The notes below the pieces were generated by a model that was given only the letters and a program-made list of their open reading frames with translations, ran no database searches and had not been told where the DNA came from. DNA of 64,000 nt from Dermatophagoides farinae (lineage: Eukaryota; Arthropoda; Arachnida; Sarcoptiformes; Pyroglyphidae): assembly GCF_024713945.1 (NCBI RefSeq), contig NC_134686.1, positions 2,938,001 through 3,002,000 on the forward strand, written 5' to 3'. Below are positions 29,704 to 61,252 of the stretch, piece by piece (within the stretch, counting starts at the first letter, position 1; each line of letters begins with the position of its first letter). Position numbers and translations under genes: made by a program.

Positions 29704-29854
29704 CCTGTCCAGCCAAGCAACCAATCAATTTCGAAATAAATAATCTCATCGCATCTGATCTGATAATTGTTATCAATCACCATCATACCTCACTGTCCAC
29801 CACAATATAATAATCGTTGCTATCAACAACAAAATCCCCGAATAAATAGCCAAA

Positions 29855-29982
29855 ATGAGTAAATATCTGGCAACAACACCTTTAACCTTTTCACTTCTAT
29901 TCTACACATCGCTTATCACATCGATCTTCGAGGTCATGTCAGCCAGGCTGCCAGATATTTATTGGAATTCGACGAATCCAAT
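29855..29982 (+). CDS. Ephrin, first coding exon (signal peptide and start of receptor-binding domain); partial
   Basis: ATG 29855 sits in a good initiation context (GCCAAAATGA), with an in-frame TAA upstream at 29843-29845. It opens 42 codons plus two bases and ends at AAT CCA AT|GTAAAT. Residues 1-30 form a signal peptide with a hydrophobic core (LTFSLLFYTSLITSIF). Residues 32-42 read LPDIYWNSTNP, which matches the first strand of the ephrin domain (YWNSSNP in vertebrates, HWNTSNS-like in flies) and includes an N-glycosylation site. Without splicing the frame would stop two codons later, so the exon must continue elsewhere. Animal ephrin genes commonly break at this point before a long first intron. 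Ephrins are membrane-anchored ligands of Eph receptor kinases used in axon guidance and boundary formation. The rest of the domain and the membrane anchor are not in the window, so the subtype cannot be told. Confidence 0.78.
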
Positions 29983-32900
29983 GTAAATTTTTATTCATTT
30001 TCTTTTTTGCTTTCTTTCTTTCTTTCTTTCTCCTTTTTCAGTCCACAAAGTGTTATTGAATTCATCAATTTATCTTGATGACTTTTCTATCACTTTTGAG
30101 GATTTTTTTTTTCGTTGTTGCTTATCATTGCTATACATTTGGTCTGAGAACCAAATCACATATGATGATGATGGTGAATAGTGAATGAGTATAGAAAATG
30201 ACAGGCCATTTTATTTTATTTTATTTTATTTTATTTCATTTCATTTTTTTCCAACTCCATACATGTATTGTCATCATCATTTTTTTATTGAGTTCATTTG
30301 ATTGTAACCAATAATGAATGAATGATGATGTAGTTCAAAAATAAATCCATCTGAATATATAAATATAAATATTATTGGAAAGTTTTTGTCACTATTTACC
30401 ATTTCATTTTTTTTTCTTGAATTTAAATCTCTATTCATTTGAATAGCGAATCACAATATGTGTAAGATATGTTTTTTTTTCAACATCATCATATGTGGTG
30501 ATGCTTGGTCTGCCAAATACAATAAGACCGTATTGTATAGATTTTAGGGTTATTTTTATCTTTTACCAATTTAAAATAACCACAAAATTCGCATTTTGAT
30601 GATGATGAAAACGATGTGAATGGATGTAGTTTAACACTAGAGTTTTTTTTTGTTGGATCAATGCCGAACAATACAAAATATTATTCATGAATGAGAATGA
30701 ATAGTAATGGTATTTTATCGCCCAAAATTATTATTGTGATTGTATGATTACATTTTCAAAAAAAAAAAAAATCAAATCCTAATCTAATCTAATCTAATGG
30801 ATGGATGTGTGCTGCATGCACAGCATAGTAATCATGTATTCATATCTGCTATTTTCATTATGAATTTTATTTATTATTATTATTCATTGCATCCAGGTTT
30901 GATAAAGTCAAGTGGTGATCATCATCGATTGTGGTTCAAAATTTTTTTCAGTAGAATGGTTTTTTTTTGGCATCACACGACGATATGATGATGATGATGA
31001 TGTGAATTAATAAAAACTAGTAGCAAGTATGAGTAGATGGGATACCTACTTTTTTTTTCTTGACAATGATGATACTTGAATCATTGATCATTGATCTACT
31101 TATTATTATTTTTTTATTTTTTATCTTTCTGCATCTTGTTACTGGTTTCATTATATATTTAGCTCAAGTACCTTTTTGAATCAAGAATCATTTTGGATGA
31201 TTCAACTGTCATTGTTTGTCAGTTGTGTATGTAAGTCATTCATTTGTGGTACTGCACATCAACATGTCAAACATTGTTGTTGTTGTTGTCTTGAGAATCA
31301 AAGTGAATATGATGCATTTTCTTTTTTTTTTTCTTGACAGATCAATCAATGAAATCGTTTTGTTTTATTTTTCCTCTTTACATTACAAAAAAAAAATAAT
31401 CTAAAAATACCATGTTCGATGTCGACGATTAGGTCAACATGCATGCATTCAGCCACGTGGATGTATATGTTGAATAGTGCAACAATGTGTAGCTTATGGA
31501 TCAAATTGTTTCTCATAAACACAATCATATACACACACACACCTGTGAATCGTATTTGCAGCAACAACAATATGATCCAGTTATTTGAAATTTATTCTTC
31601 TTAAAATTTCAAAGTCAATTTATGCAGCATGCATTAATGGTCTGTATTGTATGATGATGATGATGTAGTGTTGGATTCAAATTTTTTTTCTGTATAAAAT
31701 GACTATCTTTGTAATGGTTCATTGGCCACAAAATAATGAAACTGAATGGAATGAAATTAACCAAGGTCAAAATATCACTTCTGATGATGATGCTGATGTG
31801 ATGGTTGTGTGTTGTTTGGGTTTGAACATTTTTTTTTTCTCGCCATTTCACATACATTCATTCCGCATCAATTCAGTTCAAAGATGATGATCAATAATTA
31901 TTATTCGACCATTCGACAGGTAGTAATGGATGAATGAATGAAGATGAGTGAAAGAAAAGAAAAGAAAAGAAAAAAGGTTTCAATAATGGTGAAAGGTGTC
32001 CGAATCTAAAAAAAAGAGAATAAAGACGGTGAACAAGATTATAACAACGATGAACGAAAAAAAATGGGCATACAGAAAGCAATGCTCAATAGTTGACCAC
32101 ATAAGCCGGTTCCATAGTGGCCAACAAGATGTGTGTGCATCCATCATTCTATCGAAGTCGAAAAAGATGATCGCGACCAGTTTTTTTTCTTTTTGTTGTT
32201 GTTGTTGTTGGCCTTACCTTTTTCTCACACGTCTTGTCGTCGTTGTTGTTGTTGTTGTTGGCTTTCAATTCTTTTTCTCATTTGTGTATTTGGTATGGAA
32301 AACGTTTTTTTTCCCCTTTACTTTCTGAATAACACTTAATCAATTCAATGATCTTCTTTAATAATAATCATTCATAATCATCATAATCCATCATCAAAGT
32401 GTGATCCGATTATTATTATTATTATTAGCTTTTTTCATAATATCAGAAAAAAAAGAAATAACGCTATATGGTTATTATTATCGTTTTAATTTTGCTGATG
32501 ATGATGATGATGATGATAATAGTGATAATAATATCCTTATTGGTCAAAACATGGTATCTATTAAATGAAAAAAAAATCGGATTTTAAAAGCTGTTGTTTT
32601 TTTCCGTTTTTGTTTCTAGCACTGATTCGCTCATTTGAAAATATTATGATGATGATGAGGATTTTTTGAAACTAGCGATAATTTTTTTTTATTTTATTTT
32701 AGCAACAAGTGAAAAGACACATTCAATTCTTATATAATGATTATATACAGCCAAACATATACATACATATATTGATTATGTTTCAGGTTTCTATAGTGCT
32801 ATGAGAATTTCTTTTTTTTTTCTTTTAAATTTTTTTTCCATGATTCTCATCTAAAAATCCAACCGATAATATCAGATTGTATTTGTTCATACACTACTGC

Positions 32901-35900
32901 TTGATGGTTATTTATTTCTGTTTATTGTAAACCGTTTCTTTTTTTTCTTTGTCAAGAATTATCATTATCATGATGATAATATGTTGTCGAAATAAAATTG
33001 TGTGTATGGATGTTTGACATGGCCCATGATGAACATTAACCGTTACCATAGTCTTGTCTTGTCTTTCTATTTTCTTTTCATTGTGTTTTGAATTTCTTTG
33101 TGTTTTTTTTGGTTCCCATCTGGTATTCATTGTAATCATAAATGAATATCATTATATTATTACATCACATGGGGTATCATCACCGTAATTATTGTTATTG
33201 TTGTGGTATGGCCTGAGCCTGTGGTCAAAATGTTGTTTCTCGTTGCCTTTAATTTGATTCGATAACATTCAACAACGATGATGATTGATCAAATTCGATT
33301 CACAGCAACAATGAATTGAATGTCGATGCTTTTTAGGTTCTGGATGATATGTTATCGACCTAGAAATATAATCTAAATATTTCTGGGACCCATGTAAATC
33401 TTATTTATTCATTCATCTTGTTTCATCATCTTGTCTGTTATCTGTTCACTTTTTCAAGTTTGTCATCGTTTTCCTTCATCATTTGTCTGTTGTATGATTT
33501 TTTTTTTGGTTTTGTTTTGTTTTCGAATGTTGAAGCAAAAAAAAAACAAGTTCAAAAGAAAAAAAGCCGATTCGAAGCAAAGTTTATTTCGAATAATTAA
33601 TAGGGGATCTCTTCTCTTTTTTTTCACTTTACGAATATATCTGCTAATTAGTTTTTTTTCCTCTTGGCCTCAAGATTCTTTGCCGTCGTTTTGCCCCCGG
33701 TTCATTTGCCAAGATGTTGATGATCTGGTGTGGAGAAGGAAAAAAGTTTCAACTTTGAAAACGAAATGAGAATTGGTATTTCCTTCTTATTTTTTTTTTT
33801 CACTTAAAACTTTTGATATACTTCTGGCGGCAATCATGGATGATACCATTTTCAATGATATGGCTGCCTGTCTAATTACCGACTTGTATACAGGTACGAC
33901 TCTTTGAATACGCTCAGTTTTTTAGCATCATCTTCATCATCATCATTTTTTGTTTTGCTTGTGTCAAGATAAGCTTTTCACATTTTCTGTACTTGTATTG
34001 TCATTGTTATTGTCATTCATGAACGAAAAAAAAGTATGAAAATTTCCAAATTCCATATAATGAATAAATGGCCGTTACCATTATTATGTAGCTTACTACC
34101 TGATGGCCATATTTATAATATACAACAATAAATAATGGATACATACATTATCGTATAACACGCACAAACTTCGTGCAGTAGCAGATGCATTTGTTGCTAT
34201 TGGTGTGTTATCTGTACACATTGTGACCAAACTTCTGTCCTTCTGTTATATATTGTATTATAAATCGGAATTTTTTTTTATGCTTCTGTATGGCATACAC
34301 AATAATGATCATCATCCGAATGAATGATGACCATCCATTCAATCAAATGAATGGATGAATGTCTTAAACCGGCCATGACCATCGATGATGATGATGATGA
34401 TGATGGCCATCAAAAAGTCGTAGGATGCCATAGTTTGAGTAATACATTTTCCAACCACATGCACGCATTTTATTGATTGGTCAATCCATTGTGTCTGTGT
34501 GTGTGTGTGTGGAAAATTGTCTTACCCAAATGATGGAAAATGTTGTAGAAATTAACTTGGACATTACATTGATTCCGGTCAAAAATCACAAATCGTTCAT
34601 GTCAACGTTTTTTTTTTACTGGTCACGAAATTCGTTGTTCCGTTTTTGTTAAATGTTTTTCTCTGTTGATTGTTGATCATAATAATGGCGTCTGTCTTCT
34701 GGTGTGTTATGACCAATCCAATTTCTTAACTGAAATTGGCCACCTTTTTTTTAATGCAATTAGTTTGTATTTATAATACCTTAATAATTTCATTGAATCT
34801 GTACACATAATAATCTTGTCGTTTCTCATTATCATCATGATCATTCATTTTCAAATAGCTGACCATAACCATCAAATTTGAAAGGAATCAAACTTTATCT
34901 TTGATTTTTTTTTTTCGTTGTTTCGTCGTTCCAGTTATCATTCCACTCCTTATTGTATGTTGATTGATTATTGACATTTTTCTCCACTAGATTTACTTTA
35001 CTGCTTGAATGTGAACATATCTATCTATCTATCTATCAAACAAATGCAATTTCTTCCTGGAAGAAAAAAAAATTTCAGTTTGATTGACTCGACTCGAAAA
35101 AAAAATTTATATTTTAATTAGAACTTTTGCTGGTTTGGTTTAGTTTTTTTTTTTTTTTTTTGCAAAACATTTTCGACATTATCATCGATAGACGTAGGCG
35201 TCAATAGTGTCCACCATTTAAATGAATGCTGCTGCTGTGTAATGCTTCAATCACAATCCAAATGCAACACACACACACACACACACTTGTCACATTGCAT
35301 GATGGTGATGTTCATCATCATCATCTTATGATGTTGAATATGAGATATGTAGCGATTCATTCATTCATTCATAGAAAATGATCGATTTAAAAATATTCCT
35401 TGGTGATTAAGACGAAATGATTCAACGAACGAATGATAAAATGATAATGTGGTGTGTGTGTAGTAATACATCAGCATAGGGTCAATCTCAACGTCACCTC
35501 TCATATGCACATCAATCATAATATCAGCCTCATGATGTTGGTGTAGTTCGGGAGTATAAATTTTTTTTTCTGAAAAAAAAAGTTTCATAGCTTACTGCTG
35601 CTGCTGCTGCTTGTACCTTTCTTACCATCCGATCGGATCCGATCAAATTTACGAATGGCAGTTTTTCTACTTTTAGCCAATGGCAATTTCTATATATACT
35701 TGACAATGAGCAGATGTGTTTTGAACAAAATTTTCTGTTTCATCATCATCATCATCATCATCATGATCGTTGAATAAGATCATTTAGGTAGAATTATTAT
35801 CAATGTATGACAGATTACTATGTAGTTATATGATCGATTGTATTCAATCGATCAATTCATACGACAATTGTTTTTTCTTATGTATCCAATGTTGATATTG

Positions 35901-36924
35901 ATTGGCAGAACAAATTGTCGTTCATGTTTATTATCGATGTGTATTTCGATTTATCAATAAATATTCTTCAGTATTGTTTTGCGATGAAAACATTTTTATC
36001 AGAATCGATTTGATTATTGTAAATCCATTGATTATGACAATAACAATCAAGGAATGAATGAATGATTGTGATCCGTTTCGAATAATTTGTCACGATTTCT
36101 TTCTTTTCAAACATCATCAAATTACAACAATGATGGGTATGTGTGTGTGTGTCGTTGTACCGGCTTCCTTGTATTTTGATAATGAACGGTTTTCGGTTTT
36201 TTGTCCAACATTCTTGTTGTTGTTGTTGTTGTTACTAATCTTTTTTAATTGCCAAATGTTCTTCATACATAAAAATTGGTTAGTGGATAATAACACAGAA
36301 GAAAGGAAAAGATGCAAAAAGTTTTTCATCATGAATGGATGATGATGATGATGATGATGGGTCAAAATAAAAAGCTGTGACCAACCATATCAATCTGAAT
36401 TGTCTATCCATGAATTACCTGGACAACGAATAGAAACAGATAGAAAGACATGTAACATTCATGGTCATATCATTTTGCGGAATGAAAATCATCATCAAGT
36501 CAAGTTTGGTTTAGATGACTGGATGAAGGGAATAATTTGATTTGTCGTTTTTCTAATAGCATTTCTTTCTCTCTCTCTCTCAGATTTCCTTGTAATAGCC
36601 AAATGGTCATTCTAATTTGATTAAACTAATGATGTTTTTTTTGCATGTTGTTTTGTCCATATATATTTGATGACCAAAATCAAATGAATCTCGACAATGA
36701 AAAACAGCAATAGTTGAAGAATTGTCTCAGGATAATGATGATGGTAATGAATATAATAATGATTCAGCATTCAGCTAGCAAACAATCCATCTGTTTTGTT
36801 GTATTGAAGGTTTGATCCACATCCAACAACATTGATATGGATTTCTCACCTTGCCCATTTGGTCAGTTGATTGGTCGGTTTTTTTGTCGTCCTCTGTCTT
36901 ATTGACCGAATGATGATGACGATC

Positions 36925-36969
<45 letters not shown>
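36925..36969. repeat. ATG/ATC trinucleotide microsatellite, 15 uninterrupted copies
   Basis: This is the longest perfect copy of the triplet repeat that recurs throughout the window. It produces a 15-residue poly-His frame on the minus strand (in 36775-37104), which I regard as an artefact. Confidence 0.9.
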
Positions 36970-38648
36970 GGTGAAAAGAATTAAAATAAAAAGACTTTGA
37001 AAACAAAAAAAACTTGCTACATCGTCAACTGTATGTTGATTGTATTCCAGAAGACCTGTTTTTATTTTTTTCTGTTTCTTAATTTTCATTACCATCCTCA
37101 TCATACATTATATTGCCAATTTTGAAAGGTTCGTCATTTTTTTTTTTTATTATTATTATTATCACAATTTCTTTCATACTAATGAATAGCGCATCTTTTC
37201 TATTTCTATCATAATATAAATGATGATGATGATGGTGATGAATAGATGGATGGGATAGATATATAGACGAATGAATAGGGTACTATTTGGTGGCTGTTCA
37301 TCATCATCACTTTATTTTTTTTTTTTTTGTCTTGTAAAATTATTTTTTATGACCATTTTGAATGAATTCAATTCAAACTATGACGACGATGACATTGAAG
37401 GTCTAGGATTAGATTTTAAGATTTTCATCACTTGTAATGTCTATATCCATTGGTCAGCATTTAGCTAAGGTATATATGTAAAATTCATTCATTCTCGCAC
37501 TGATTCTGATGATGATTTGTGTTTTGTATTTTTGGATTTAGAATTGAATAAAAATTGAATTTTTTTTAAATACACAACGTGGCCATAAATTTTTCGGCAT
37601 TCAAAAAAAAAAATATGAAGATTTTTTTTCCCCCAATTATGATCAATGGTGATTTGGCGTTTTTTTTTAAAAAAAAAGAATGATCAACGAAGAATATCAA
37701 GAATCCGTAGTCTGTATTTTTTATTTCAAAAATTTTCTTCCATAAAGTCTGGCGGTAATATTCGGTCCCTTGATATTTTTGTCGGTTTGCTTGTTTTGTC
37801 CAGTATAAATTGAATAAATTAAATTAGCATATATACGTATAAGCTAATGGAATGTATTCGATGTTTTGAATGTGGTGAATTTCTTTATTTTATTTCTATT
37901 TATTTTTTTTAATGCTATCCGGTCCATATGTTGTTGTTGTTGTTGTTCGAAGTTGAAGTTTGTCGGCTTTTTTCTTTATTTATATTTGATGATCATGATC
38001 ATGATGATGATGATACACATTCATCATTGATTCATTCATATTCATAAAAATAATGAAAATATTCATTCAGTGGATATATTCATCTTGCAGCTTTGAATAT
38101 TAATGTTTTTGTGTGTGTTGTCCTATTGTCAGTGATGAGAAAAAAAATGAATATGATAATGAATGAATGAATGGCAGACTTTCCTATTGTGTGGAGATTG
38201 TGCTACCCTACCTACCTGTTTAATGATTGTCGAATTGATCGATTTTGTTTCACAATTCGATCATTGTCGTCATACCGCATAATAGTGTTTTTCTATTTAT
38301 ATTTTGTTTTGACAATTGTCTGTTGTTGTTGAAAAAAAAAATTCATAACGAACCTAGAAAATCATTTATTCACTTTAGCTTTGGTCCATTTTGTTTAGTT
38401 TTCAACTGATCTGATCTCGTTTTGTTGTGTGTGTTGGTCCATAGTTTTATCCATCCAAAAGATTCCCATTTCACATAAACAATACACATTGACATTGATT
38501 TACCGTCAATGTGAATGTTGCTCAACTTTTTTTTTGTCCTTGATCAACAACAACTCCTCCCCAACATATTGGGAACAATTGTGATGACATAGTTTGTTGA
38601 CCAAATGATAATAATAATGGTGATGATGATTCGCATACAAATCGGTTT

Positions 38649-38855
38649 TTATACGCTAAAATGCACCCATTTTTTCATGGGGAGAAAAACTGAATTGATG
38701 CGTAAAGCACAACCATAGTAATTATCTAATCGATGAAGCCACTGATTGTGTCCATCGATCCATTCACAGACAACAATGGTGCACATTTTTTTTTCATTTG
38801 ATTGATTTCTCTCATCATTGTCAATTAACATGAAACAACGTTGCTGCTTCTCCAT
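38649..38855 (-). CDS. Possible small protein of 68 residues, unidentified
   Basis: An ATG-initiated, non-repetitive frame (starting MEKQQRCFMLIDNDERNQ, ending MKKWVHFSV) with ordinary codon variety lies on the strand opposite ephrin, inside its presumed intron. No signal peptide, motif or splice-matched partner exon was seen. It may be a nested small gene or chance. Confidence 0.18.
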   Translation of the reverse strand: MEKQQRCFMLIDNDERNQSNEKKMCTIVVCEWIDGHNQWLHRLDNYYGCALRINSVFLPMKKWVHFSV

Positions 38856-41800
38856 TCTGTTTAAAGATCCTTTGATTTTAATTTATACAATACAATGTAG
38901 TACTATGCGTGTGTCTGTATAAACGTTCCATTCATTTAATGATGATGATTGTTCAATTGTTGAACAGAATACAGCAACTTGATCATCGTTAGTTTTTCGC
39001 ATTTCCCTGCTGATTTTTCATTATTTAGTCTGTAGTAGTACGTGCTATTTCTATGTTGGTGATGACTATTAATCAGTATTAAACCATACGATTGGTCTGA
39101 TTAGTTTGTAAATGATGTTTCTATTGATACAAAAATAAAATTTTCAAGATTGGATTAGCCCCGGCGATTTGGATGATCTTTCATCCGTAGGATGATGATC
39201 TTATTATTCAGTTACTACTAGATTATTTGCAATTTTTAATTTTGTTTTTTTTTTGTTTCTTTGAATAAAAAAAAATGAAACCAAAATTCTGTCAACTTGT
39301 TACACATACATACATTTATTGTGTGTGTGTGTGCGTGTGTGTTTGTGCTTGTTTGAATAGGATCATATTTCCGTCGTTGTTTGGTTCCTATATAAATTGT
39401 CCACATAAAAGAATCAAATTACTGCCCGAATGAATCCATTTGGTTGTAATCCGATCCTCGATCCGTATTTATAACGGATACGGTTATTGACAATAAAGAT
39501 GTCATACAAGCCCGGCTGATAATAAATCCAGCTATATATGTATTGTATTATCGATAATTTATTTATTTTATTTTTTCTTTTTGTCAATTATGGCAAGTGC
39601 ACACATTGTCCACTGTTCTGTTCTGTTCTGTTATGTTTGTTTATTCAATTAAATTATTGGCCATTATTTTCTTACTGGCCATCATCATCATCATCATCAT
39701 CATCATTATTGAAACATTGTAATTTGAGTTCAGCATATGGATAATCCATAAATTCTGTGGATCCATTATTTGAGATGATGATGATGATGATGATAATGTG
39801 GACATTGAAAAAAAATTTATCATCCAAAAAATTCATTCATTTTTAGTTTAGTAATTTAAATGGAAAAAAATCATTTATTTTTTTGTTCGTAATCCCATAA
39901 TCATCAACATCATCGGTGGCCATAAATTTATTTGAATTGATGACAAGTTTAAGAAACCAGACGAATATGGCTTTTTTTTGTTTTTTTTTCACTTTTTAAA
40001 ATGATTAACATTGATGATGATGATGTGGACGACATCCCCATTGGAATTTGTTTTCTTTTTTTTTTCTTCTTCTTGAAAATGTTTATTAATAGCAGCTAAA
40101 GACATTTGAAATTTGTGTGTGTGTATGTGTCGAGTATGAAATGTTTTTTTTTTGATAGTAGCAAATCACAAACACACACACACACCGTGTCTCGTTGACT
40201 ACCCATTTTTTATATTCCCAAAAAAAAAAAAAATGTTCAGCAAAAAAAATATCCGTATTGATCACCCAAATTGATGTTTATATGTTTGCGTGATGGAAGG
40301 CAAAGTTGATTGACTGATTGATTTTCCTGTTTTGGTTATTTTTATTTTTTTTTTTTGAATTCATGAAACAAACCGATTGATGCAATTTCGACTACATTTT
40401 CGTTGTATTATGGTTTGGAATTTTAATTTTAATTTTTATTTGTTTTTTCTTTACTTTTTCATCATCATGATGAATCGTTCAATAATTCTTGTTTGTTTGC
40501 GTTGAGCTTTTATTATTACTCTACCTGTTTGTTTGATTATTTTTTGTTGTTGTTGTTTTTTGTTCGAATGTTGGCGCCATTTAATTGTCGCAATGAATGA
40601 ATTATTTGTAGTGATCCTCATTGGTTTATTTTATTTTTTTTTACACCACACACGCACACATACAAAGGGTTATTATTTAAGTTACAATTTATTCATTTGC
40701 AAATTAATTTGTTTTTTTTTCAAAACTATAAAAATAACAACAACAACAGCAACAAAAAAACCAGTGTTTTTCAATTTATTTACAGATCATCATCAACCGG
40801 TCGGTCATCTGGTCTTCATTCGTCGTTAATGAATTCATGATGATGATGAAAACAATACAGAAACATCACAGAAAGCCATCATCATCATCATCGTAGTCAT
40901 GAGGAGAAATCCAATTTATACAAACACTTGATGTATGACTATTTTTTATACACGATTTTTTTGTTTGTTTGTTTGTTTCAAATAAATTACCGAAATGGAT
41001 TATTGTCTAGAAAAAAAATGAGTTTGATTGTTTGGCTATTCGTTTTTTTTTAGAAACAAATCAAATATATAAAATGGACCACGATGTTTTTTTTTTACCA
41101 ACTTTTCACATTTCATTTTATTTGGCCATTGGCCATCCTATTTATTGTGATGTGTAACAATAATTAATAGACATTTTATAATTGAAATTGCTAATGATGA
41201 TGATGATGATGATGAGTTTCCTGTTTTCTATTCCTATATAGACTGACTGACCACCACACCAGATGTTTGGCAGTATAGGCGTGAAAATTGATGATGATGA
41301 TGATGATGATCTATACACACATTTTGAATTTCATTTCGTTTCGCTTCTGTAAAACACAAAAATTTTTTTTGTAAAATAAGGCAATTTACTGAAATGAAAT
41401 GAAAAAATTCATTTCATTTGATACAACAACAACAACAACAACAAAAAGTTTGGCAGGTGAATGTTTCGTTTGTTTGAACCACCAATCTCGTGACCATTAA
41501 TATTTGTGAAAGATTCGTGTGGTTCTTTAAAAAAAAAAAAAAATATTTCGCCATCTCTACCCAATTAGTTATTTGTCAATCCACGAATATCAATGGAGAT
41601 GGAGATAGATAGTTAATTAGATCCATTTAACTTATTAATGTTTCGTTTTTTTTTCTTCTTCTTCTTCGTCTTTGGGTGCCATTTTGATTGATCGTTCGTT
41701 AGTTTTTTTTTTTTTTTTTTTTGGCCATTCCAGTGAAGGTAAAACCACAGCCATCAATTCGTGAATTTTTTTTCCCCATCCACACATATACACATATAAT

Positions 41801-44800
41801 AATTGATTCGATCATTTTCTCTTTGTCAGTTAGTCAGTCAGTCAGTTTATTTTTTTTTGTGATTGCTTTGCTATATATAATGATTATAATCACTATTAGT
41901 CGACTACCTATGGATTTATTTGGTATCTGGTTTGTCTGTGAATTTAAACTTTTCTTTTTAATTTTGCTTTTGTTTACAAGATTTCATTGTCAAGTTTTTC
42001 AACATTTTTTAGATTTTGATCTAGTTAAATTGGTTGATCATTTCATCATCATCATCAGTAGCATATAAGTAGTTTATTTATTATTTTGAATCATGAATCA
42101 CTTTTTTTGGCCTATTTATTTTTTTTTGTTGTGTAATAAATTGCTTTCGTTTATTATAAATGAAAGAATCGTATTTCGTATTCCATCATCATCATCATCA
42201 TTTTGATGATATATTTTCATATTCATCATAGTCGTGGAGGTGGTCATGATTTATGTACATTGCATTTTGGAAATTTCCTATAAACTTTTTCTCATTTGAA
42301 TCACGATTTTGTTGGGAACAATTTTTCTTTTCATGTTGGAAAATTAAAATCAAACAAGAAACTTTTGACCTCCGGTCAATTCCTTTTAGCACATTTATTT
42401 GGGATTTTTTTTTTGTTTTGTTTCGTTGTGATGTTTACAATGTGTCTGAGATTTTGACCACCAACCACCATCATCCTTTTTTTCTGGTTGTTTTGTCGGT
42501 GATGAATTTTCAGTCATTTTCTTTGTTGTTTTTTTTTTATTGTTATTGCATTGCTTTTAGCACTGAAATAAAAAAAAAATTGATCAGAACTCTCTCTGTT
42601 TTTTTTTTTTTTTTTTTTTGAAACAATTCTTGACGATTATTATTAGAGAAAAAAAAACAACAATAACATTTCGTTGTTGTTTGTGTTTGTGTTTGTGTGT
42701 TTGAATTTGAATTTGAAGCAAAAATAAAATAAATGTCTGGCCATCACATCATACACACATTCAGTGTTTGCACATGTTTTCTATCCATTTCCTTTTCAAG
42801 AATTTTTTTTTTTGTTGTTCTCTAAATATTTTCAGTCGCTTGACCATATATGAAAATAGAAAAACAATGAAGACTTTTTGATTTTGACCACTCATCAAAA
42901 ATTTGATCTGTTTTTTTTTCTTCTTCTTTGAATTCTGGCTTTCTTTTTTTTGCCGCTTTTTTTTGTTCGTTCGATATCCGGATGAACATCAGTCGGGTTG
43001 AACAGAAAAAAAATGAATTAAGTCATTGAATTTTGTGAAAGTAATTAAGTTATTAGATTAGTTGTGTGTCCGGTATGAATTTTGAAACAAACGAAAAAAA
43101 AAATTGATATTGCTTATGATCATTACAAACATATACAGCCGACCAATTGGATGATGATCATCATCATCATCAAATTTATTTGGCCACCTAATTTGATTGT
43201 GTTCACACACACATACACATCATATGTGTGTGTCGATTATACATTGGGTTGTGTGCGTTTTCTTCTTATGTCCATCATGATGATGATGATGATCAATTCC
43301 CGTAAAATTTTTTTCTTTTGAAAGATTAGAATTTTTCTTTTTTTTTCTGAAAGGACTTTGTCCTAAATACATTACATTACATTGAGCTATGAATGAATCT
43401 TCGTGAAAATATGTTGTTGTTTTTTTTTCATTCAACCTTTGTTCAGGTAGAGGCCAATCATGCTTTTCACCTTTGACCTTGCTTTTTTTTGAATAGGTGG
43501 GTTTCATAGGTTTCATTCTTTTTTTCTTTATTCACAATCATTTTGGTATTTTCGTGGAGAAAAATGACCAGAAAAAAAATGAAGAAAAATGAAGAAAAAC
43601 GTATACAACACTAGCCACCGTAATAAAAGCATGTTGTTTGTGTGTTATTCATGGCTTATATGAAAAACTAACTTCATTGTCGATGTGAGCCGTTTAGGTT
43701 TTATGCTTTTATTTAATTTGTGCTAAATTATTGACGGCTACACCAGACCTTGGAGCAGGCAGCAACATGTCATGGATATGGACACGTACTACACTTTTTG
43801 TGGTACACGTACGTTTCTGTCTTAACATTGATGATAGTCCCGCTTTGTTATTAATATTGTAATGGTCAAATTTTTGGCTTATTATTATTATTTTGGTTGT
43901 TCATTAGTCAAATATATATATGTTATTAATGTCGGTGGGTAAGGCGTTGTTTTTTCTTTTTTCTTCTTACATTCTATTATATTATGGGCGTAGACGGTTT
44001 ATTCATTCAAAGACATTGTCAATCTCAATCATTGCATCCTCATAGCATTTGTTCTTTGTCTTGTTTTTGAATTGCCGAAAAATAACACGTCGTCGTGCAA
44101 AACAGACATATATAAATACTGATAGATAGATAGCTATAAAGAGAGAGAGAGGTGTGAAAGGTCAAATCTTGTCGAATATGTGGTGGTCGCCTTTCTTTCT
44201 TGCTTGATGATGATGGTTGTTTTTTGTTGTTGTTGTTGTTGTTCATAATGATTGCCGCCAAACACACACACACACACTTTATAACAGAACTATGGATGAC
44301 CATTATTTTATCATACCGAACCGAATAATTAAGTCTCTCTTTGGTTCTCTCATTTCTATATCTTTCTGGTCGGCTTTTATTCTTTTGACCAAACATTTTT
44401 CTTGATTTTCATCATTCATTGTTTTTTTTTTTGTTGGTTGGTTGGTTGATTGGTTGTTTAATCCACTGTATATATCTTTGCATTTTTAGATGTTTTTTTT
44501 ATGAATCGAAACGTGTCTTCAGTATCTCGGTGTTTATGTGGAAAGCGAAATTAGCCAATGATCTGATCAACAGAATGGCATTTCACCTTTGTTCTTTCAC
44601 TATTCTCGCTCAAACATAACACACACACACACCCGAAGATTTAAGAGAAATAAATCCATAGATTCTAACCAAGTTTATGTGAATAGTATGAATGAAATGA
44701 TCATACACCATGGTCAACAGTTGATCACACCACCACAACTACTACTAACGATACTGTTTTGGATTTGTATTTGTCTGTGTCTATGATCACCCGGTATGAA

Positions 44801-47800
44801 AGTCTATATTTTTTCCTTGTCTATTTTTTTTTCTTCATTTTTTTTCATGGAGATCAAACTTTATCGATTAGGAATGTGCTTAATCTTCTTGATCGTTTTT
44901 CCATCCCTTGTCGTTATTGTTGGAAACCAAAAAAAAAAAAAAAAATTCAGGCTAGGCCACAATACATTTTGTATTATGGCATAAATATAAAAAATAGTTT
45001 TAGTTAGGTAAATCGACTTTGACCTTTAAAAATAATTTCTTTTCCATCATGGTTATGCTCTGGTTTTGTTATTTATTGTGTTGCAAATAAGGAAAATGAT
45101 TTCTTTGGTTTGGCGATCGAAGTGATAGAATTCCCACTGTGTGGTGTGCTAGTTGTCCATTATTTATCTATCTATTCACTTGTGATTTTTTTTTTTTTTT
45201 TTTGGTTTTTGTTTTTAAAAGTGCGAATTTGACAGTTCTACATTGCCACATACATACATACATACATACAGTCTAGTTAAGATGATGATGGTGATCATTG
45301 ATGATCAACAATAACAAATCGAAAGTCGTTACTGAATGTGAATGTTTGAATGAATTGAACATATATTTCCATAAACGGTTACATGCCGTGCAGGTTTCAT
45401 ATGCAGAATCTCTCTTTCTATATCTGGATCAAATGAAAATGACCCCCTTTTTGTTGTTGTTGTTGTTGTTGTTCATGTTGTTTTTCTTTCAGAAAAAATA
45501 TAAGTCATACAAAAAAAAAGAAACCTAAGGCCAATTTTCAATGAATTCGACCATTTGTTTGTCTACAACTCAGTAATAATGATGGAAAAACAGTTTAATT
45601 TTGATTGACTTTGAAGAAAAAAAAATCGATTCGGTTCAAGTTATTCAATTCGAATCCAATGAACCATATATACCGTATATATTCACACAAAGAAAAATTT
45701 CAATCAACCAACCGATTGATAACAAAATATATAAAAAAAATGTCATGACGAATGAAATGTAAATGGAAAAAGCCTTTGAAACCATTATTTCATCGACTGA
45801 AGTGTGTTTGATCTGTGTGTGTGTGTGTATTAGAAAAGAATGACAATTTCAAATAATCAATTTTTGCATACAGTTGTTGTTTGTTTGTTTGTTTCTATGT
45901 CATATATCTTGTGATCTATAGAACTACTACGTACAAAATGTGCGCGTACCCGAAACGATTTTCATACTGTCTTGTGTTTTGTTTGTTTGTTTGATTCATT
46001 TTATTGTTCTCTCCATTGAAAACGGTGACTTATTTTTTTTTTTTATTTGACGACAAAAAAAGTGAGTGTTTTTTTTCTCATTGAAGAAAAATTGAATTGA
46101 ATTGTGCTGCACTATTATTGAATACTATGGAACTTTGTCATTCACTTATCATCCCTTTTTTTTCGTTTGATTGTTGCTGTTCACATATACAAACCTTATG
46201 TTTTTTTTTTGTCTTTTATTCAACTTTAACTTTAACTTAAAAATTCAATTTCTAGATCAACAACGATAGTAATCAACAACAATCTTGGCCCTGTTTTTTT
46301 TTTTTTTTTTGGGCCCAGCCATGAAATTCCAGGTCTATTATTGAACATTGAATCAATTTGATTAGCTCTTCAATGATATTTATCGATACAAACTGTGTTT
46401 GTGTATAGTGTCACGAACCAAAAGTAAAAAAAAACATACTGAAGTGGTACTTGAGTTGAGAAAACAAAAAAAAATTGACAAGAAAGACCCAGTTTATTAT
46501 TTTTTTTCCCGTAACTTGTGTCTTTCATTCAGACTTTGATGACAATGAGCTTGGTTGGTTTTTCTTTTCCGTTCGGATAAATAAAAAAAAAATCTTTTCT
46601 CCCGTCATTATTGTCATTGTTGTTGTTGTTGTTGTTATTGTTGTTGTTGGCCATTGAAAATTGAATTTGTCTCCAGTGATTCGAAAATATCTTTTCCATT
46701 TTTTTTTCCACTAAAATGAAAAATTCAATTCATTATGTTTGGCCATTCTACATTCTTCAGATCTACTTTACAAAATCGTTTGTCATCATCATCATGATCA
46801 TTGTTCTGAGTTGGTCCAAAAGTTTTATTTTATTTTTCATTGATTTATTATTTACTGTTTTCCATTGTTATTGTTTGTTGTTATGGTCACAAAACGAAAG
46901 GATGATGATGATGATGATGATCGGTGGCCATCATTTCCTGTTCGGACATTTGGACATTTGGACATGTCTAATAACATGACCATATTGATACTTTTGAATA
47001 AATTATCAAATTTTTTTTTGATTTTTATGAATGATATTTTTATATATACCTGTATTCAGGAAAAAAAATCAAAAATTGGTTTCTTCGGCTTTTCATTTAT
47101 TTTCAGAAAAAAAAATCGTCTTTGGATTATTTCTACGTCTTTTGATTTAAATTAAACATCCATTTACATTTACATATACGTTTGTGTGTGTGTGTGTGCA
47201 TGTTTGCCATAATACCCATATACGCGCTACAGGGAGTTTTATTTTCTGAATTGAATTTCATTTTCTGTTTTAATACATTAAGAAGAAGAATTATTATTCA
47301 TCGAAGCAAAAATTTTCATACAACACACACACACATACATCACAAATGTATCGATATTATTGAATAAAAAACTAAAACTAAAAACGGAAAAGGAAATCAA
47401 AAACGTTCAAAACGGAATCATGCATCATGTAATAAAAAATTTTCTGTTTTTTTCTCATTTCAATTCTATTGTTCAGTTTGTCTGAGTCATCATGATTCAA
47501 TCCTTTTTTATTGAGAAAAAAAATTATTCAACATTCATTCATTTACCCAAAACGTTTCGAACCGGAATTCACTTTATGCAACATCATTCTTTCCCAGGGT
47601 CTTTTGATCAATTTTGGACCATCTGAATTTGAATATATGTTGATAATTGAATCATTAAACCAGAAAAAAAATACGAATTGAAAACATTAGTCACCTATGT
47701 TGTTTTTTGTTTTGATATGGTAATCATCATCGTCTTAGTGTTTTTTTTTCTCATTTATTTCATGCTTTTTTTCAACATTGTTACCATCCAAATACTGATG

Positions 47801-50520
47801 ATAATCTTGATGATGACCGTCAGGATGTATGAAAAATAAAATTTCGTTTCACACGGTCCAACCACATCAGAATCGACAAGTTGACTATGTGATGATGATG
47901 GTGGTTGCTGTGTGACTTGTTTCTTTGTATTTAATTCTCATATTTTGAATTTAGAATTAAATATTCATCGTTATCGTTATCATCATCATCATCATTATGA
48001 TTATGATTGCTGCGGTCTGTGATGACATGACATTTCTTTTGGCTTGAATTCATAACTTTTTTTTTGTTGGCTTCTGTTTGAAAGATTGAATTTCTTTTAG
48101 AATAAATTTTTTTTTTCTATCAAAGATTGTTGATTTTGGCTTATTTCACCATCCTTTTTTCTGTCTTGAATTTCATTCTTTTTATTGCCATCATCATCAT
48201 CATCATCATGAAATTTTTAGCAATATTCAATGACATAGATTCTGGTATAGAATTTGTCAACTCTTCTTGCTTTTTTTTCCTCTTTGACAATATAAGATGC
48301 TTGTTGATTCTATAAACTTGAGTTTGTCATTTCATTCAAGATTTGGATCATGTTTTTAATTGTCGTTTGGGCATAACATTGTTTTCAAATTTTAAATCAT
48401 TGAATTTCAATGATGAAAAAAAAGTCAAAAACACAAAAAAATGGCAACTTATCAAAACAAACAAACTTTTCACTATTCACAACAAGTGGACAAATTTAGA
48501 TTTCTTTCAAAAAAAAAAAAAAAAAAATGTCGAATCTGTTTTTCCTCATAAATGGTGATTGAACTGAATTTAATTTTTTTTTTTTTGAGAATCACCACTG
48601 AATTGAAGAAGATTTGAATTTTTCAAAACAAACATCATTCATCCATTGAATGCTGATGCTGTATAATGTCTCAAGTCTGTTTGTATGTAACTTGATCTTA
48701 TTTATGTGAGTCACAAGTAACAACAACAACAAGCGAGACAAATCTTAATGTAAATCTTAATCTAAATTTTGTTTGACGTTTCCATCATCATGAAGAATGT
48801 CGATGTTTGTTTGTTTGTTCCAGAATGAACTGTAAATTTTTATTTTTCATTTTTTTTTTTGTTGTTGTTGCTGAGAATTTCATGCACGAATATCTTGATC
48901 ATTTATTTCATTTCCATGAAAATTATTACGACATTTATATATTCAGTCGATTAACTGTCACCATCTCATCATCATCATCATCGTTAGTGATGATGGTTAT
49001 TATGGTTTTTTTTTCTTCATAATGTTTCTTGACTACAGAAAGAATAATATTTAAGATGTGGGGAGCTGGTGATGGATAAATTTAGAATTTGTCACACACA
49101 CACACACACACCTTACTGTTTATTCAATAACGATATATTGAAATTTCAATTTCAATTCAATTTTTCTTTATTTATTTACCACAAACATTTTGGTTAGCAC
49201 AAAAAAAAATAAAACAAGTTATGCTTGAAATTAAAATTAATGTTCATGGTTGTTGTTGTTGTTGTTGCCTCATTCGAATTTGAAATGGATTCATTTGATT
49301 TGATTTTTATTTTCTGCGTTTAATCGAATGGAAACTATGAGAACAACAAAAATTTGCAACCAAAACCAATGTATCTTGTTTGCTAGTTTTGTTTGTGTCT
49401 TTTCCAATAGGCACGTAGAAAGTTTTCATTTTTTTTTTTGTTTCTGGATCAAATTATCCGTTTTTTTCCGTTGTTATGAGCGCCCAAATATTGACAAGAA
49501 AAAAAAATAACCGCCATATTCAAATGGCTAATTACATTACATTAATATATCTACAACAGAAACAAATTATCTATACAACAATCTATTATCGTTTAACAAC
49601 AATATTTGTCTGGTAAAAAAAAAAACAAAAAACAAAACGGTGATTAGCATAATGGATTTTTCATAGAAGAAAACTGAATAACAATACAATGATGATGATG
49701 ATTACTAGTGATTAGTAGTGATTGGTAATTAACGATCAACCCAAAACACAATCAATTAATTTTTCAGAAAGCTACTTCAGCTTGCCTGTGTAAAAAATGA
49801 TAACATATAAATTCAGTGACTGTGATGACGATGATGATTCAATTATTTGATTGAAATTTTTCCTGTTATATGAATGATACATTCGGAACAACAAAAACAA
49901 TAATCATGAATCATGATGGATCATTAGTGAGAAAATTCAAAGAAATTCAAAATGGATGATGAACATTTTTAATGACATCTTTCATTCGACTTACTACTGC
50001 CACTATCATCATTATCCTTCAGGCGAAAAGGTTTTAAATCTTTTTAGGTTGAATGTCAGTGACACACACACGCAGTAATTCAGTGGTCACTATAGTACGA
50101 ATTTAATGTCTTGCTTCTGCGGAAAACAAGACAAGACAAGACTATAGTTATTCCCGAATATAATAGTTATTTGAATTTTTTTATTTTTTTTCTGTTTGTC
50201 GATAAATAAAAATGACACTTTTTTGCATTGTATTGTCATGATGCTGTCATCATCTTCCATTGTCTTGATTACATTCGAATGAATGAATTGCTTCTATGTT
50301 TAATTTAAATCTTCTTTTTTCATCGCCTAATCAACCTGTCACCTGTGTTTGTTGTTGTTGTTGTTGTTGTTCCACTCATATGCTAATTTAATATAATATA
50401 ATGTAACATTACTACTGTCTGTATGATCTTTGTGTGAAGATGTCATCATCACCGTCTTTCCTCTACTATGTTTGTCCACACATGATAATTATCAATATTT
50501 CATTTCATTTTCGTTCTCAG

Positions 50521-50536
50521 CTACAATCAAGAGACG
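50521..50536 (+). other. Candidate 16-nt microexon
   Basis: Sixteen bases are bounded by a good acceptor (TTTTCGTTCTCAG) and a donor-like GTAAAT on the ephrin strand. Sixteen is not a multiple of three, so inclusion would shift frame. If joined to the ephrin exon it would give NP-IYNQET, which is not ephrin-like, so it is probably not a coding part of ephrin. Confidence 0.15.
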
Positions 50537-51495
50537 GTAAATCTTTTTCTTTCTCTTCTCCATTTCCTAAATAATTCATTTCTTTTAGTTGAAAACATGA
50601 AATGACATCGACCTTCAAAATATCATTTCTTTCCTAAACAAAACAAAAACAATTAGAATCATTTGCTCCATTACATTATTATCATCATTTTAATATACAT
50701 AATAAAAATGGTGAATCGTAGTTTGAAGAAAATGAACCGTCAATTGTAAGGCTATCAATTTTAACCAACCTGCCAAATATATTTTTTCAAAGCATATTCG
50801 TATTGAATAAAAGTGTCGGCTATAATCATTATTTCATTATTATTTTGTTCTTCAAAATTAAACCCTCCTTATACAGCATCAAAAAAAACAAGAAGTGTTT
50901 CATCAAAAAAAAAAACAAACCATTTGTAGGTTGTTGGCTTAAATATAAAACCTTAATTGAATTCATCCTTCTTTTTCAGGCACAAAAACACACACACATA
51001 CACTATGTGTATGATCCATTCAAATTGATGTGATATTGCATCCACCTAGTACACAATAGCTTTTGATGATGATGATGATTCAACAGAAAAAAAAATATTT
51101 AATGTTTGTCGTCTTTATTCAATCTTGTTGTTGTTGTTGTTGTTATTCGTGTTATACGATAACGATGATGCCTACGATGAAATGTTGATTGAAATTTTTT
51201 TTTCTATCCCGTTTATATACAATGAATAATACACACACACACTGATTACTGACAAAACTATGATTATAATGAACACCATGTTTCCATTTTCGCCTATAGG
51301 TTCATCATCATCATCAATGTTTGTGTGTGTCTGTATGGATCAGTTTTAATGATTGATTCACTTTTCTGTTCTGTTGTTGTCGCTGAACGTGTCGTCGTCG
51401 TCGTCGATGTATTCACCATTGTTCATTGTTGGATTTTTTTTTTTTTAATATTCTCCTTTCCCAGTATTTCTATGTGTGTGTTTTGTGAATTCAAT

Positions 51496-52553
51496 TCACC
51501 ACAAACAAAGATGATGATGATGATGATGATGAAGGGAAAATTTTCTTTTTTTCTTTCCATTCAATTTTTCTATAATGTTATCATCGTGATATTTCAATGA
51601 AAAAGATCCATTCGAAATATTATCATCATCATCGATTGGATCGGTGGGCCAATTAGATTGGATTGACTTAATGATGATGTTTAGATGTTCTTCAATTTGT
51701 CCATAAATCATTGTTGGTATGTTTGTAGGTGTTATTGAATTTGTAGAATTATAAAATGTTAAATGATAATAGTTCATAATAATTATCATGGATGGATTGA
51801 TTGCAAGATTTATTCGTTGAAAATTGTTTGTTTCAGGTCGATTCATAGTGTTTTTACTGTGCGAAAAAAAAATCGAAATTGTTGATGTTGTTAATTAGTG
51901 TTGTAATGCCATGAAATCAATTACGCCTCTGTGTGTTTGTGTGTGTGTGTGTAATTGAAAAATGTTGGCAAAAAATGAAGGCGTAATTGATTTTCTCTAT
52001 ATACAAATTTAACTTTATAATAATTGGTGTTGTAAAGTGGTGATGATAAAACAAATTCCTTAAATGAAAATGAAACTGTTTCATAATTTCATTTCACACA
52101 CATACGTTTGTTATGTTTGTTTTTTTTCAATATTTGTCCATAATAGATCATCATTACATTCATCGAAATGATCCAAATGAATGAATATGATTCACACAGG
52201 AAACAATAGTTTTTGATTATTTGCAACAATAATTAACATATATCCACACACGTTGACCCATTTGTTGACCCATATGTTTTGCCATTGTTTCAATGATTTC
52301 AATGTAAATGTTAAGAATTTTTAATGAGAATTTTTTTTCCTGTTCTGGAACAATGACCATGTTATATTTATCACCTTTATCACACCTGAACGTGTGTATA
52401 TATGTCATTCTTGTGATGTTCATAAAATTCTTTTAATGTTTTCTTTCTGAAAAATTTTTGTTTTTTTTTATTTATATTGAAAATTTCGCTTTCAGTGAAT
52501 GGTGAATTTTTCATGAGAAAAAAAAAATTTTTGAGAATTTCAGCTTCAATCAT
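51496..52553 (-). CDS. Possible three-exon nested gene, product unidentified
   Basis: Three non-repetitive open segments follow each other on the minus strand and can be joined in phase: 52553-52386 (56 codons, beginning MIEAEILKNFFFLMKN), 52339-52248 (beginning EKKFSLKILNIYIEIIE) and 51856-51496 (entering through a good acceptor, TTTTTTTTCGCACAG, and containing MNRPETNNFQRINLAINPS). The joined product would be about 206 residues, Lys/Asn/Ile-rich, ending in a His run from a triplet repeat. Introns would be 46 and 391 nt, but both donors (GTGTGA, GTGGAT) are weak. An in-frame TGA lies just upstream of the first Met. A TATAAAA on this strand lies near 52795. It would be nested in the ephrin intron on the opposite strand. 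I recognise no domain; it could be a decayed gene or chance. Confidence 0.25.
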
Positions 52554-53482
52554 CCAAATGACAATGCAATTTTCTCATGTTAATAAGAAAAATAATCTTT
52601 GAGCCAAATTTTTCAAAGATTTCTCCATTTCCAATAATGATGGCGATTCCATTGTTTTTTTTTGTCGTTGACGAATGGAAAAGAGGATTTAATTGTCATA
52701 AAACTTTTTGCTTTCCTTTGTGTGTATGCCTGTGTGTATGTTTGCAATGGGAACCTCTTTTCCGATTCTAATGATGATCGGATTTGAATTTTTTATAAAA
52801 TATAATTTTTTCGGTAGAAAATCTTCTTATGAAAGATCCTAGACCTAGAAAGAGGTGTTTGAATAAATGAAAAATTTTCGTATTTTTTGTTTACTTCGCT
52901 AAAATCATTGACATTTTTTTTTGTTCGGCCTGAATAATTAATCAATTGATCAGTATTGTGTTTGTGGATCAAACACTATGCTATGACAAAGAATATTGGG
53001 TGCAGTGATGATAAATTTTAATACTTTTTTTTAGTTATTCAAACAAAATATCAAGCTGTGTTTTGTGTTTGTTTTTTTCAATATTCTTCATGATTCGGTG
53101 ATAAATTACAATTTTTTTCGTTGCCAGAATGAATATAACAATTCATAACCATCTTTGTTGTTGCTCGACTTGAATTTCGAATATTTTTGTCTGACAATTA
53201 TGACGATCCACAATAAACAACGAACATCCTTTTCGTTTGATGTTTTTTTTTTTGGTTTGGTTTTCCTGTGTTGTATTCTATGATGATGATGATATGATGA
53301 TAACAGAGAGAATGAATTTATCTATCTATCTATCTTTATGGAGATGATGATCATTTATTTCACATCATGATCATCATCTATATCGTTAGAGAAAAGAAAA
53401 AAACCTGAACAAGATTGAAAAACCTTGTTGTTGTTGAACTGTATGATGATGAGCTTTATATTTTATTTTGCCAGTCATATAG

Positions 53483-53508
53483 CACACACACACACACACA
53501 CACACACA
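53483..53508. repeat. CA dinucleotide microsatellite
   Basis: Thirteen CA units. It is one of many GT/CA runs in the presumed ephrin intron. Confidence 0.9.
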
Positions 53509-54037
53509 TGGATTCATAATTAATAATCAAAATGGATCGGATTTTTCGTTTGGTGAAGAACAAAAAAAAATTAATGTTTCACAGAATATAAAAAAAAGGA
53601 GAATAACCGGTTAATATTGTCATTTTTCATTTGCTAATAGATTCTGGGATTTTTTTTCACTACTACGTTTTGACAGTTTGTCATTGCGTGTGTGTATGTA
53701 TGTGTATGTCGTGAACACGAACACGATGCTATTGTTAATTAATTGAAACCGTGTGCATGATTCGAATGGAATGGAATGGAATGACTAGTGTAATGTGTCT
53801 GTTTCAAACTTTCATCTTTTTTTTTACTTGGATCTAAAATTCCGTTTGATTTTCGACATGTTTCGAATCAAGCAAGCAGGACCGACCTTTTTTTCAAAAC
53901 ATTTGAGCAATAACTACAACAACAGCAACAACGATTGAAGATTTCTTTTCTTTTTCCTTAATCCCCTTATTTATTTTCATTGCCGAAATAACTAATTCTT
54001 TTTTTTTGTTTTCTTTCTTTCTTTTTTTTCCATATCT

Positions 54038-54045
54038 AGGTGAGT
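54038..54045 (+). promoter_or_regulatory. Candidate recursive (ratchet) splice site in ephrin intron 1
   Basis: AG (54038-54039) is directly followed by GTGAGT (54040-54045), so a complete acceptor abuts a complete donor with a zero-length exon. Upstream lies an almost unbroken pyrimidine tract (about 53996-54030) preceded by AATAACTAATT, a good branch-point match. This is the architecture of ratchet points known from long introns of flies and vertebrates. It lies on the same strand as, and 24 kb downstream of, the ephrin first exon. Function is inferred from sequence alone. Confidence 0.55.
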
Positions 54046-57000
54046 TTCAATAATTTTTGTTTTTCATTATTTATGATTGCCTGAAATGAATGGATTGTGC
54101 AACTGTACAAAACTTGGTTCTGTATTGGTATTTTTGATCAACAACAACGATGATGATGATGATGATAAGAAGCTTGAAATTTGGAAAAATTTTTTTTTTC
54201 TCAAGTTTGTCATTGAACACTATATTATTAATTTAGTTTTAACATTTTCCAATTTTAATTTATTATTTGCTAAACAATTATTAATCTCCTATAGTAGTGG
54301 TTTATAATAATTGATGATGATCAATCAGTCATGATCATTTAATAGTTTGCATATATATAGTGAAATGAAAACAATTATTGTTGTTTGACAATAAATTTTT
54401 TTACTTTCCATGCGTATAGTTTTGCATTGTGTCCTGTTTATTGTACAAAAATGTTTACCCTTTGAATTATTATTGCAGCCAATCATATTTATACACATGA
54501 TCGAAAACATCCCATGAATCGAATGAAAATATTTACATCCTGTTCAGTTGTATAAAAATCCATATTTAGATTTAGATGATGATGATGATGATGATCATTG
54601 TTGCAAGACTGTTATTTTTTCGGGCGAATTTTTTTTTACCAACATTCATTTTGTTTTGTTGCCTCCAATTTTTTTTTTTTTTTTTTTGAATGTATGAACA
54701 TCCCTTGTGTGTAATATATTGAACAACATGGTGGTGGTAAACATTTGACTATAGTCCTTTGAGGATGATGACGATGACGATAAACATAACTTTGTCCAGA
54801 TATTGACATTGTAAAACAAACAATTCGATGGAAAACAATGATTTTTCTTCGTTTTTTTTTACGCAATGATAAAATTTATTATTACAAGTACCTAGCCTAT
54901 GTACAATTCGTTTCGTTTACTTATTCATTGACTGCAACAACAACAAAAAAAAATCAGCGAAAAGTAGTAAAATACAGTGGAAAAAAGGTTTGGTCAGACA
55001 AAAAAATGTTTATGCAAATATTGAATTTTCTGGAATTTTTCCCTTTTTTTTCTAAATATTTTTTTTTATCAAAAAAAAAAAAAATAAGTTCCTTTGTGTT
55101 GTGCAAACAAACTACAAACTAAAAAAAAAAAAAAATTCTAATGACACAGGGAATTGTTTTATTATTTCTACCATCAGAATCGTACAACATTCAACACATT
55201 GATCGATCGATCGATCTATCGATTTGTTGTTTTGTTTTGTTTTGTATCCCAATTACATTGATGACAATAATAATAATAATAATAATAACGAATAATCGAT
55301 TGATTAAATCCTAGATCCAAATGTTTCATTTAGATTCGTTTCTAATTCCAATTCAATATATTTTTTTGTTTTTTGTTTTTTTGCACAACTGAATTGTTGT
55401 CAATCACACAAACACGAACAAACTAATAGCCCCTTGATGAACACCGAATTTTTATTGTTTAGTCTGCAAAATTTTGTTTTTCGTTTTCATGTGTTGTCAA
55501 ATGATTGTTGTAGCGGCTGTTTCTCGTTAGTTTTGATTGCACATTTATGTTATGTTAGTTTTATTGATTGTGTAAACATCGTTTTATTTTTTACATCATG
55601 TCCTATAGGAATGTATTTGCTTCCATTCACTGGTAATTAATTTCAATTAACATGCAAAGAATTTACTATGTGCATGTGTGTGTGTGTGAATCAGAGAATA
55701 ATAATTCTAGTCAATGTTGGAATTTGCCGAATCTTTGTGTGGTCAATCATCATTATTATGTTCATGGCTAGATGCAATTATTATTTTTTCGATGATCATC
55801 ATTGATTCTCTAATCTTGAAGGTATCGACTTTTTGACCTTTTTCTCTCTCTCATCACAATTCAAATTCAATTTGTTGGGATGGCTAGCCTGACTTTGCTT
55901 GTTATTATTGTTCATTGATTGAACTTTTAAAAGTTGAATTTTTTTTTCTCTGTCCCCGGAATCAATATCATTTGCATTGATCTATCATTATTTTACTGAT
56001 TGTTCGGTGTTCGGTCGATCAAATGAACGTTTATGAAAGCGAATATGAAGATTGAAGCCTCATCGATTGATTGATTCTTTCTCTCGTTTTGCATTTCGAT
56101 TTCAATTTATTGAAAAAGAATAAAGAAAAATGATAATAATAATCATAATAATAAAAGATTGCCAAAAGGAGAAAGCAATAATCATCATCATCATTCTGGA
56201 CGATGATGATGATGAATACCATAAAGAAAAAGATAATTGACACCTTTGAACCTTTTTGAATTGAATGTGAATTTTAAAAAAAATGACTGAATTTCTCCGC
56301 CGAACACACACATACACATACACACACACACATAGAGTCAGTCAGTTTGTGTAAAAATGTACATTTTTATTTTTTTTCTCACTAAAACTCTCCATTATTA
56401 TTATTATCATCATCATCATCATCATAAAGCTTAGATGCATAATACCTGAATATTTGGTCGAACCTACCTATCCTATTCATATATGATATACATCTGAATA
56501 AGAAAAGTTTCAATCTTCTTATCTTTATCATCATCATCATCATCATCATCGATGGCCATCATCTTTATTCATATAAAATGAATGTGTTCTCTCTCTCTTC
56601 TATTCGTTTTGAGAAGCGTAAAACTTATTCACAATCAATAACACCTGAGTTCTGGTCTGAATTCGTGAATTTGGTTTTTCTTGCTTTCTTTCTTACATTA
56701 CATTATGTTTCAATATTCGATTCGCGCCTTCATCTTTGCCACCTTTTTTTATATTGGCTTTTTCGGTGAATTAGTGTTTTGATTGATTGTATCATGGCTT
56801 TTTTTTCTATTTCTGCTGTATTCAATTTCAATCAATGATGGCCGGGTATACACAATTCATTCACTTGCATTTTTTTTTTAATGATATGATATGATTTCGA
56901 ATGAAATTCATATCTTTTTTTTCAAAAATTTAGTTTGGCAATTTTCTTTGGGCGAGTTGCATATTTTGATTTTTGCCATCTAAGAAAGTTTATCAATTCT

Positions 57001-58958: not shown

Positions 58959-59020
58959 CTGGAGTTTTTTTTTCCTTTTTTGTATTTGAATATATATCGA
59001 TTATAGAGCTTTGTCATTTT

Positions 59021-61219: not shown

Positions 61220-61252
<33 letters not shown>

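What the first reader, a model, noticed from the sequence alone, without database searches (positions are those of the whole stretch)
29855..29982. A hidden ephrin first exon explains the 'gene desert'
Seen: a 42-codon exon with initiation context, signal peptide and LPDIYWNSTNP, cut by a donor in phase 2. Known: ephrin domains begin with a YWNSSNP-like strand, and ephrin genes often have a long first intron after it. Inferred: the remaining 34 kb on the plus strand is ephrin intron 1, very long beside the 50-140-nt introns of most neighbouring introns. An exon this short is easily missed by ORF-based annotation.
Basis: partly seen in the sequence, partly recalled or inferred. Interest (0 to 1): 0.75.

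Follow-up and report, generated by a model that had tools for sequence, protein, structure and literature searches.

The report
First exon of dust-mite ephrin gene
The short stretch is the first coding exon of the house-dust-mite ephrin gene, separated from the rest by a 62,000-base intron, and the one database model of this gene that was read lacks it; the gene itself is an ordinary, conserved cell-contact signal.

Summary
Confirmed. Window 29855-29982 is a 42-codon exon with an in-frame stop upstream, a hydrophobic leader and ARLPDIYWNSTNP, ending in a phase-2 GT donor. Downstream DNA shows this: an exon 27.7 kb past the window end begins AT|A-TTC-CGC (I-F-R) and contains NIICP. Three more exons complete a 468-residue ephrin with a hydrophobic, GPI-type C-terminus. 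Intron 1 is 61,722 nt with no N; the tests made found no nested gene or Rfam RNA. Orthologous models in Dermatophagoides pteronyssinus and Sarcoptes scabiei carry the same leader joined directly to IFRIDNTD. The genome is almost certainly D. farinae: exons 2-5 differ from deposited protein HUG17_10625 by one Gln in a Gln run. That record lacks exon 1; its first 12 residues come from two mini-exons inside intron 1, so it has neither leader nor first strand. The Blomia and Tyrophagus models seen lack exon 1 too. The gene is a normal ephrin, one copy found. New are a corrected gene model and an intron about 870 times the published dust-mite median. What the intron does is inference.

The parts
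29843..29845 (+). in-frame TAA stop upstream of the ATG
29855..29982 (+). ephrin coding exon 1: 42 codons plus 2 nt; hydrophobic leader, then first ephrin-domain strand RLPDIYWNSTNP; phase-2 donor
29983..64000 (+). part inside the window of ephrin intron 1, which runs on to extended coordinate 91704 (C10:2967983-3029704, 61,722 nt). Exon 2 = C10:3029705-3029846, exon 3 = C10:3035342-3035666, exon 4 = C10:3037520-3038179, exon 5 with stop = C10:3039440-3039591 (C10 coordinate = window coordinate + 2938000)

Best explanation
The exon is the first coding exon of the ephrin gene (one copy found) of a house dust mite, almost certainly Dermatophagoides farinae. It encodes the secretion leader and the first strand of the receptor-binding domain. 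It splices over a 61,722-nt intron to exon 2 (IFRIDNTDH...NIICP...), then to three more exons, giving a 468-residue ephrin with a hydrophobic C-terminal tail and no cytoplasmic part, as expected for a GPI-anchored ligand. Shown here: the exon, the matching phase and splice sites, the homology, and one copy found by search. Inferred: splicing in vivo, secretion, GPI anchoring, contact signalling to the one Eph receptor gene found in the genome, and any regulatory role of the long intron.
For: Pfam Ephrin on the own genome gives two matches, C10:3029685-3029855 and C10:3035333-3035584, both plus strand and downstream. Joining exon 1 to exon 2 keeps the frame: AT|ATTCCGC = I F R, with acceptor CTGCAAACAG. 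The protein of exons 1-3 matches Pfam Ephrin at 7.7e-35 from residue 30, inside exon 1, and solved ephrin-A5 from residue 26 (2x11, E 2.8e-14). All four introns are GT-AG and frame-consistent. D. pteronyssinus P0123 and S. scabiei P0124 carry the same leader joined directly to IFRIDNTD. Of 151 listed homologues (the best 120 rows of each of two searches that found 726 and 645), 146 hold the FRIDNTD-type junction and 142 of those have (Y/H/F)WN within the 12 residues before it; the four without are P0119, P0122, P0127 and P0135. Three adjacent matches to the Eph ligand-binding domain on C1 point to one Eph receptor gene. The intron holds no N.
Against: No transcript data were available, so the splice over 61.7 kb is inferred from phase, consensus and orthologous protein models, which are themselves predictions. 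The deposited D. farinae model HUG17_10625 starts differently. Exon 1 alone gives no Pfam match. The intron holds 142 stop-to-stop ORFs of at least 70 aa against a mean of 70 in 20 first-order Markov sequences, the longest 174 aa against a mean maximum of 146 and a highest of 186; I attribute the excess to simple repeats and T-rich strands, untested. The ten longest ORFs in the window part gave no Pfam match above cut-off, three of them weak ones below it at E 0.006-0.08; the other 132 were not tested.
Confidence: 0.97

Rival explanations
1. The deposited model is right: ephrin starts at mini-exons just upstream of exon 2 (MANEVIFRFTHL), and 29855-29982 belongs to nothing or to a minor isoform.
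For: Record HUG17_10625 (P0122) begins MANEVIFRFTHL-FRIDNTD. Those residues are reproduced by 91075-91095 and 91331-91344 of the extended window, each followed by GT, the second preceded by AG.
Against: That N-terminus has no leader and no (Y/H/F)WN strand. The two mini-exons are 21 and 14 nt and are not seen in P0123 or P0124, which carry the exon 1 leader instead.
Confidence: 0.02
2. The assembly has wrongly placed exon 1 or inserted foreign sequence, so the intron is not really 61.7 kb.
For: Only one assembly could be read; the median intron of D. pteronyssinus and S. scabiei is 71 bp (PMC7591027, passages read).
Against: No N in the intron. A 6-kb piece of it matches only itself and stretches shorter than 90 bases elsewhere in the genome (40 of 78 candidates scored), and there are no internal duplications. 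Strand, order and frame fit.
Confidence: 0.03

Closest known systems
Ephrin of Sarcoptes scabiei (P0124, named Ephrin-A4) and D. pteronyssinus (P0123, labelled 'Myb-like protein AA isoform X2')
   Same: Same leader, same YWNSTNP-IFRIDNTD junction, same domain and a similar low-complexity C-terminal part; 72% and 87% identity on alignment A1.
   Different: Species differences only; their intron lengths could not be read here.
Dermatophagoides farinae HUG17_10625 (P0122)
   Same: Same gene: exons 2-5 identical except for one extra Gln in a Gln run.
   Different: Exon 1 is missing and replaced by 12 residues from intron 1.
Ephrin-A5 of solved structures (PDB 2x11, 4bk5)
   Same: Receptor-binding domain with a YWNSSNP first strand; aligned over query residues 26-166.
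   Different: Distant (56.3 bits); the mite protein has a long low-complexity stretch after the domain.

Membership tests
Ephrin (PF00812) | ephrin receptor-binding domain above the Pfam cut-off | tested here: met
   120.3 bits against a cut-off of 25, residues 30-171
Ephrin (PF00812) | YWNxSNP-like first strand joined to the rest of the domain in frame | tested here: met
   phase-2 join giving YWNSTNPIFRIDNTD, as in P0123 and P0124
Ephrin (PF00812) | conserved domain cysteines | tested here: met
   C71, C99 and C113 invariant, C160, C172 and C173 nearly invariant, among 12 aligned sequences
Ephrin (PF00812) | N-terminal signal peptide | tested here: inconclusive
   hydropathy peak at residues 9-30; no signal-peptide predictor was available
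GPI-anchored (A-type-like) ephrin | hydrophobic C-terminal tail without cytoplasmic domain | tested here: inconclusive
   hydrophobic windows at about 440-468, then stop; the anchor itself not testable here
Ephrin | binds an Eph receptor | not testable with these tools
   an Eph ligand-binding-domain gene is present on C1; binding not tested

The most novel reading that the evidence does not exclude
The 61.7-kb intron, single-copy in the 6-kb sample tested and without a detected nested gene, takes up about 0.1% of a compact 62-Mb genome. It may be kept across astigmatan mites as a large cis-regulatory domain of the sole ephrin gene, which would also explain why gene models in several of these species lose exon 1.
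Probability: 0.35. Interest if true: 0.4.

Novelty: new member of a known kind. Interest (0 to 1): 0.27.

Why it matters
It corrects the start of the dust-mite ephrin gene. The one deposited D. farinae model that could be read would encode a protein without a leader and with an incomplete receptor-binding domain. The same loss appears in 3 of the 5 named astigmatan models seen among the listed hits (that these five are Astigmata is recalled), so long first introns may systematically remove leader exons of secreted signalling proteins in otherwise short-intron mite genomes (inference). The biology itself is ordinary.

Tried and rejected
Nested genes in the intron: the ten longest ORFs of the window part, out of 142 of at least 70 aa in the whole intron, gave no Pfam match above cut-off. 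No Rfam match at gathering scores in the 104 kb searched. Length by transposon insertion: no self-matches inside the intron at E 1e-10 with the low-complexity filter on, tandem arrays over 613 of 61,722 bases, and a 6-kb piece (window 40001-46000) found besides itself 53 matches, each shorter than 90 bases; the other 55.7 kb were not searched that way. A second exon 1 or a second ephrin gene: none found. Organism identification by allergen families was dropped once the ephrin hits named D. farinae; the script stopped with an error after five of its twelve loci.

Papers (listings unless said): ephrin with Dermatophagoides, 6 papers, none by title about a mite ephrin; Dermatophagoides with intron length and genome assembly, 8 papers; D. 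farinae with chromosome-level and introns, 1; ephrin gene structure, 18, nothing used; ephrin with chelicerate and Eph receptor, 1, nothing used. Passages of PMC7591027 gave intron statistics; passages of PMC7738191 gave no number for dust mites.

Full report
Observation. Window 29855-29982 reads MSKYLATTPLTFSLLFYTSLITSIFEVMSARLPDIYWNSTNP, followed by two bases (AT) and a GTAAAT donor. An in-frame TAA lies at 29843-29845, nine bases before the ATG. A search of the own genome with the peptide gives one match, itself.

Prediction tested. The window is C10:2938001-3002000 of a 62.4-Mb, 22-contig genome. A Pfam Ephrin search of that genome gave two matches, both on the plus strand and both downstream on the same contig. 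The DNA there shows an acceptor CTGCAAACAG followed by ATTCCGC. Exon 2 is C10:3029705-3029846, so intron 1 is 61,722 nt, with no N in it. Exons 3, 4 and 5 follow at C10:3035342-3035666, 3037520-3038179 and 3039440-3039591, with GT-AG introns of 5,495, 1,853 and 1,260 nt in phases 0, 1 and 1. Exons 4 and 5 were placed by hand from open frame and splice consensus, then agreed with the deposited protein.

Identity. The joined exons 1-3 match Pfam Ephrin at E 7.7e-35, the match beginning inside exon 1, and match solved ephrin-A5; exon 1 alone gives no Pfam match. Exons 2-5 equal D. farinae HUG17_10625 except for one Gln in a Gln run, which names the organism with near certainty. D. pteronyssinus P0123 and S. 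scabiei P0124 start with the same leader as exon 1 and run straight into IFRIDNTD. Of the 151 homologues listed (the best 120 of 726 and the best 120 of 645), 146 had a FRIDNTD-type junction; 142 of those have (Y/H/F)WN within the 12 residues before it (70 HWN, 69 YWN, 3 FWN). The four without are P0119 (partial), P0122, P0127 and P0135. A stricter pattern counted 136. The five without such a junction (P0065, P0090, P0109, P0115, P0145) do hold a (Y/H/F)WN somewhere.

Annotation. HUG17_10625 lacks exon 1. Its first residues, MANEVIFRFTHL, are reproduced exactly by a 21-nt and a 14-nt piece inside intron 1 (91075-91095 and 91331-91344 in extended window coordinates) spliced to exon 2. Blomia tropicalis P0127 (named partial) begins at the first F of FRIDNTD in exon 2, and Tyrophagus putrescentiae P0135 has an N-terminus without the YWN strand. 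So 3 of the 5 named astigmatan models seen lack exon 1. P0122 and P0123 stand for clusters of 8 and 11 sequences; other members, including other D. farinae annotations, may hold the right start and were not seen.

Intron. Published median introns are 71 bp for D. pteronyssinus and S. scabiei, with means of 464 and 334 (PMC7591027, passages). This intron is about 870 times that median. One neighbouring intron, in the glycogen-debranching-enzyme gene, is about 65 nt by best splice consensus. The intron is 30% GC and T-rich. It holds more open frames than first-order Markov sequence (142 against a mean of 70 of at least 70 aa), but the ten longest in the window part have no Pfam family above cut-off. 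There is no Rfam match, tandem arrays cover 1% and no internal duplications were found. A 6-kb piece finds besides itself only matches shorter than 90 bases. This favours unique, possibly regulatory sequence over transposon growth, but a regulatory role is inference.

Mechanism. Exon 1 supplies the leader (by hydropathy) and the first strand of the receptor-binding domain. The C-terminus is hydrophobic up to the stop, pointing to a GPI anchor (not shown). Three adjacent matches on C1 mark one Eph receptor gene, so a one-ligand, one-receptor contact system is likely (inferred). That vertebrate ephrin genes also break after YWNSSNP and often have long first introns is recalled, not tested.

Noticed in passing
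P0123 (D. pteronyssinus): The ephrin orthologue is labelled 'Myb-like protein AA isoform X2' in the database, a misleading name; its only precomputed Pfam domain is Ephrin.
   Followed up: partly
P0126 (Oppia nitens): A model named latrophilin Cirl-like holds an ephrin domain together with latrophilin-type domains; probably two gene models merged (inference).
   Followed up: no
P0136 and P0148 (Halotydeus, Brevipalpus): These ephrins end in a hydrophobic stretch followed by a short basic tail, unlike the tail-less form here; the anchoring mode may have changed within mites.
   Followed up: no
window 15166-16169 (-) and 19488-23872 (+): Upstream neighbours: a Myb-domain gene on the minus strand and a glycogen debranching enzyme on the plus strand.
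   Followed up: partly
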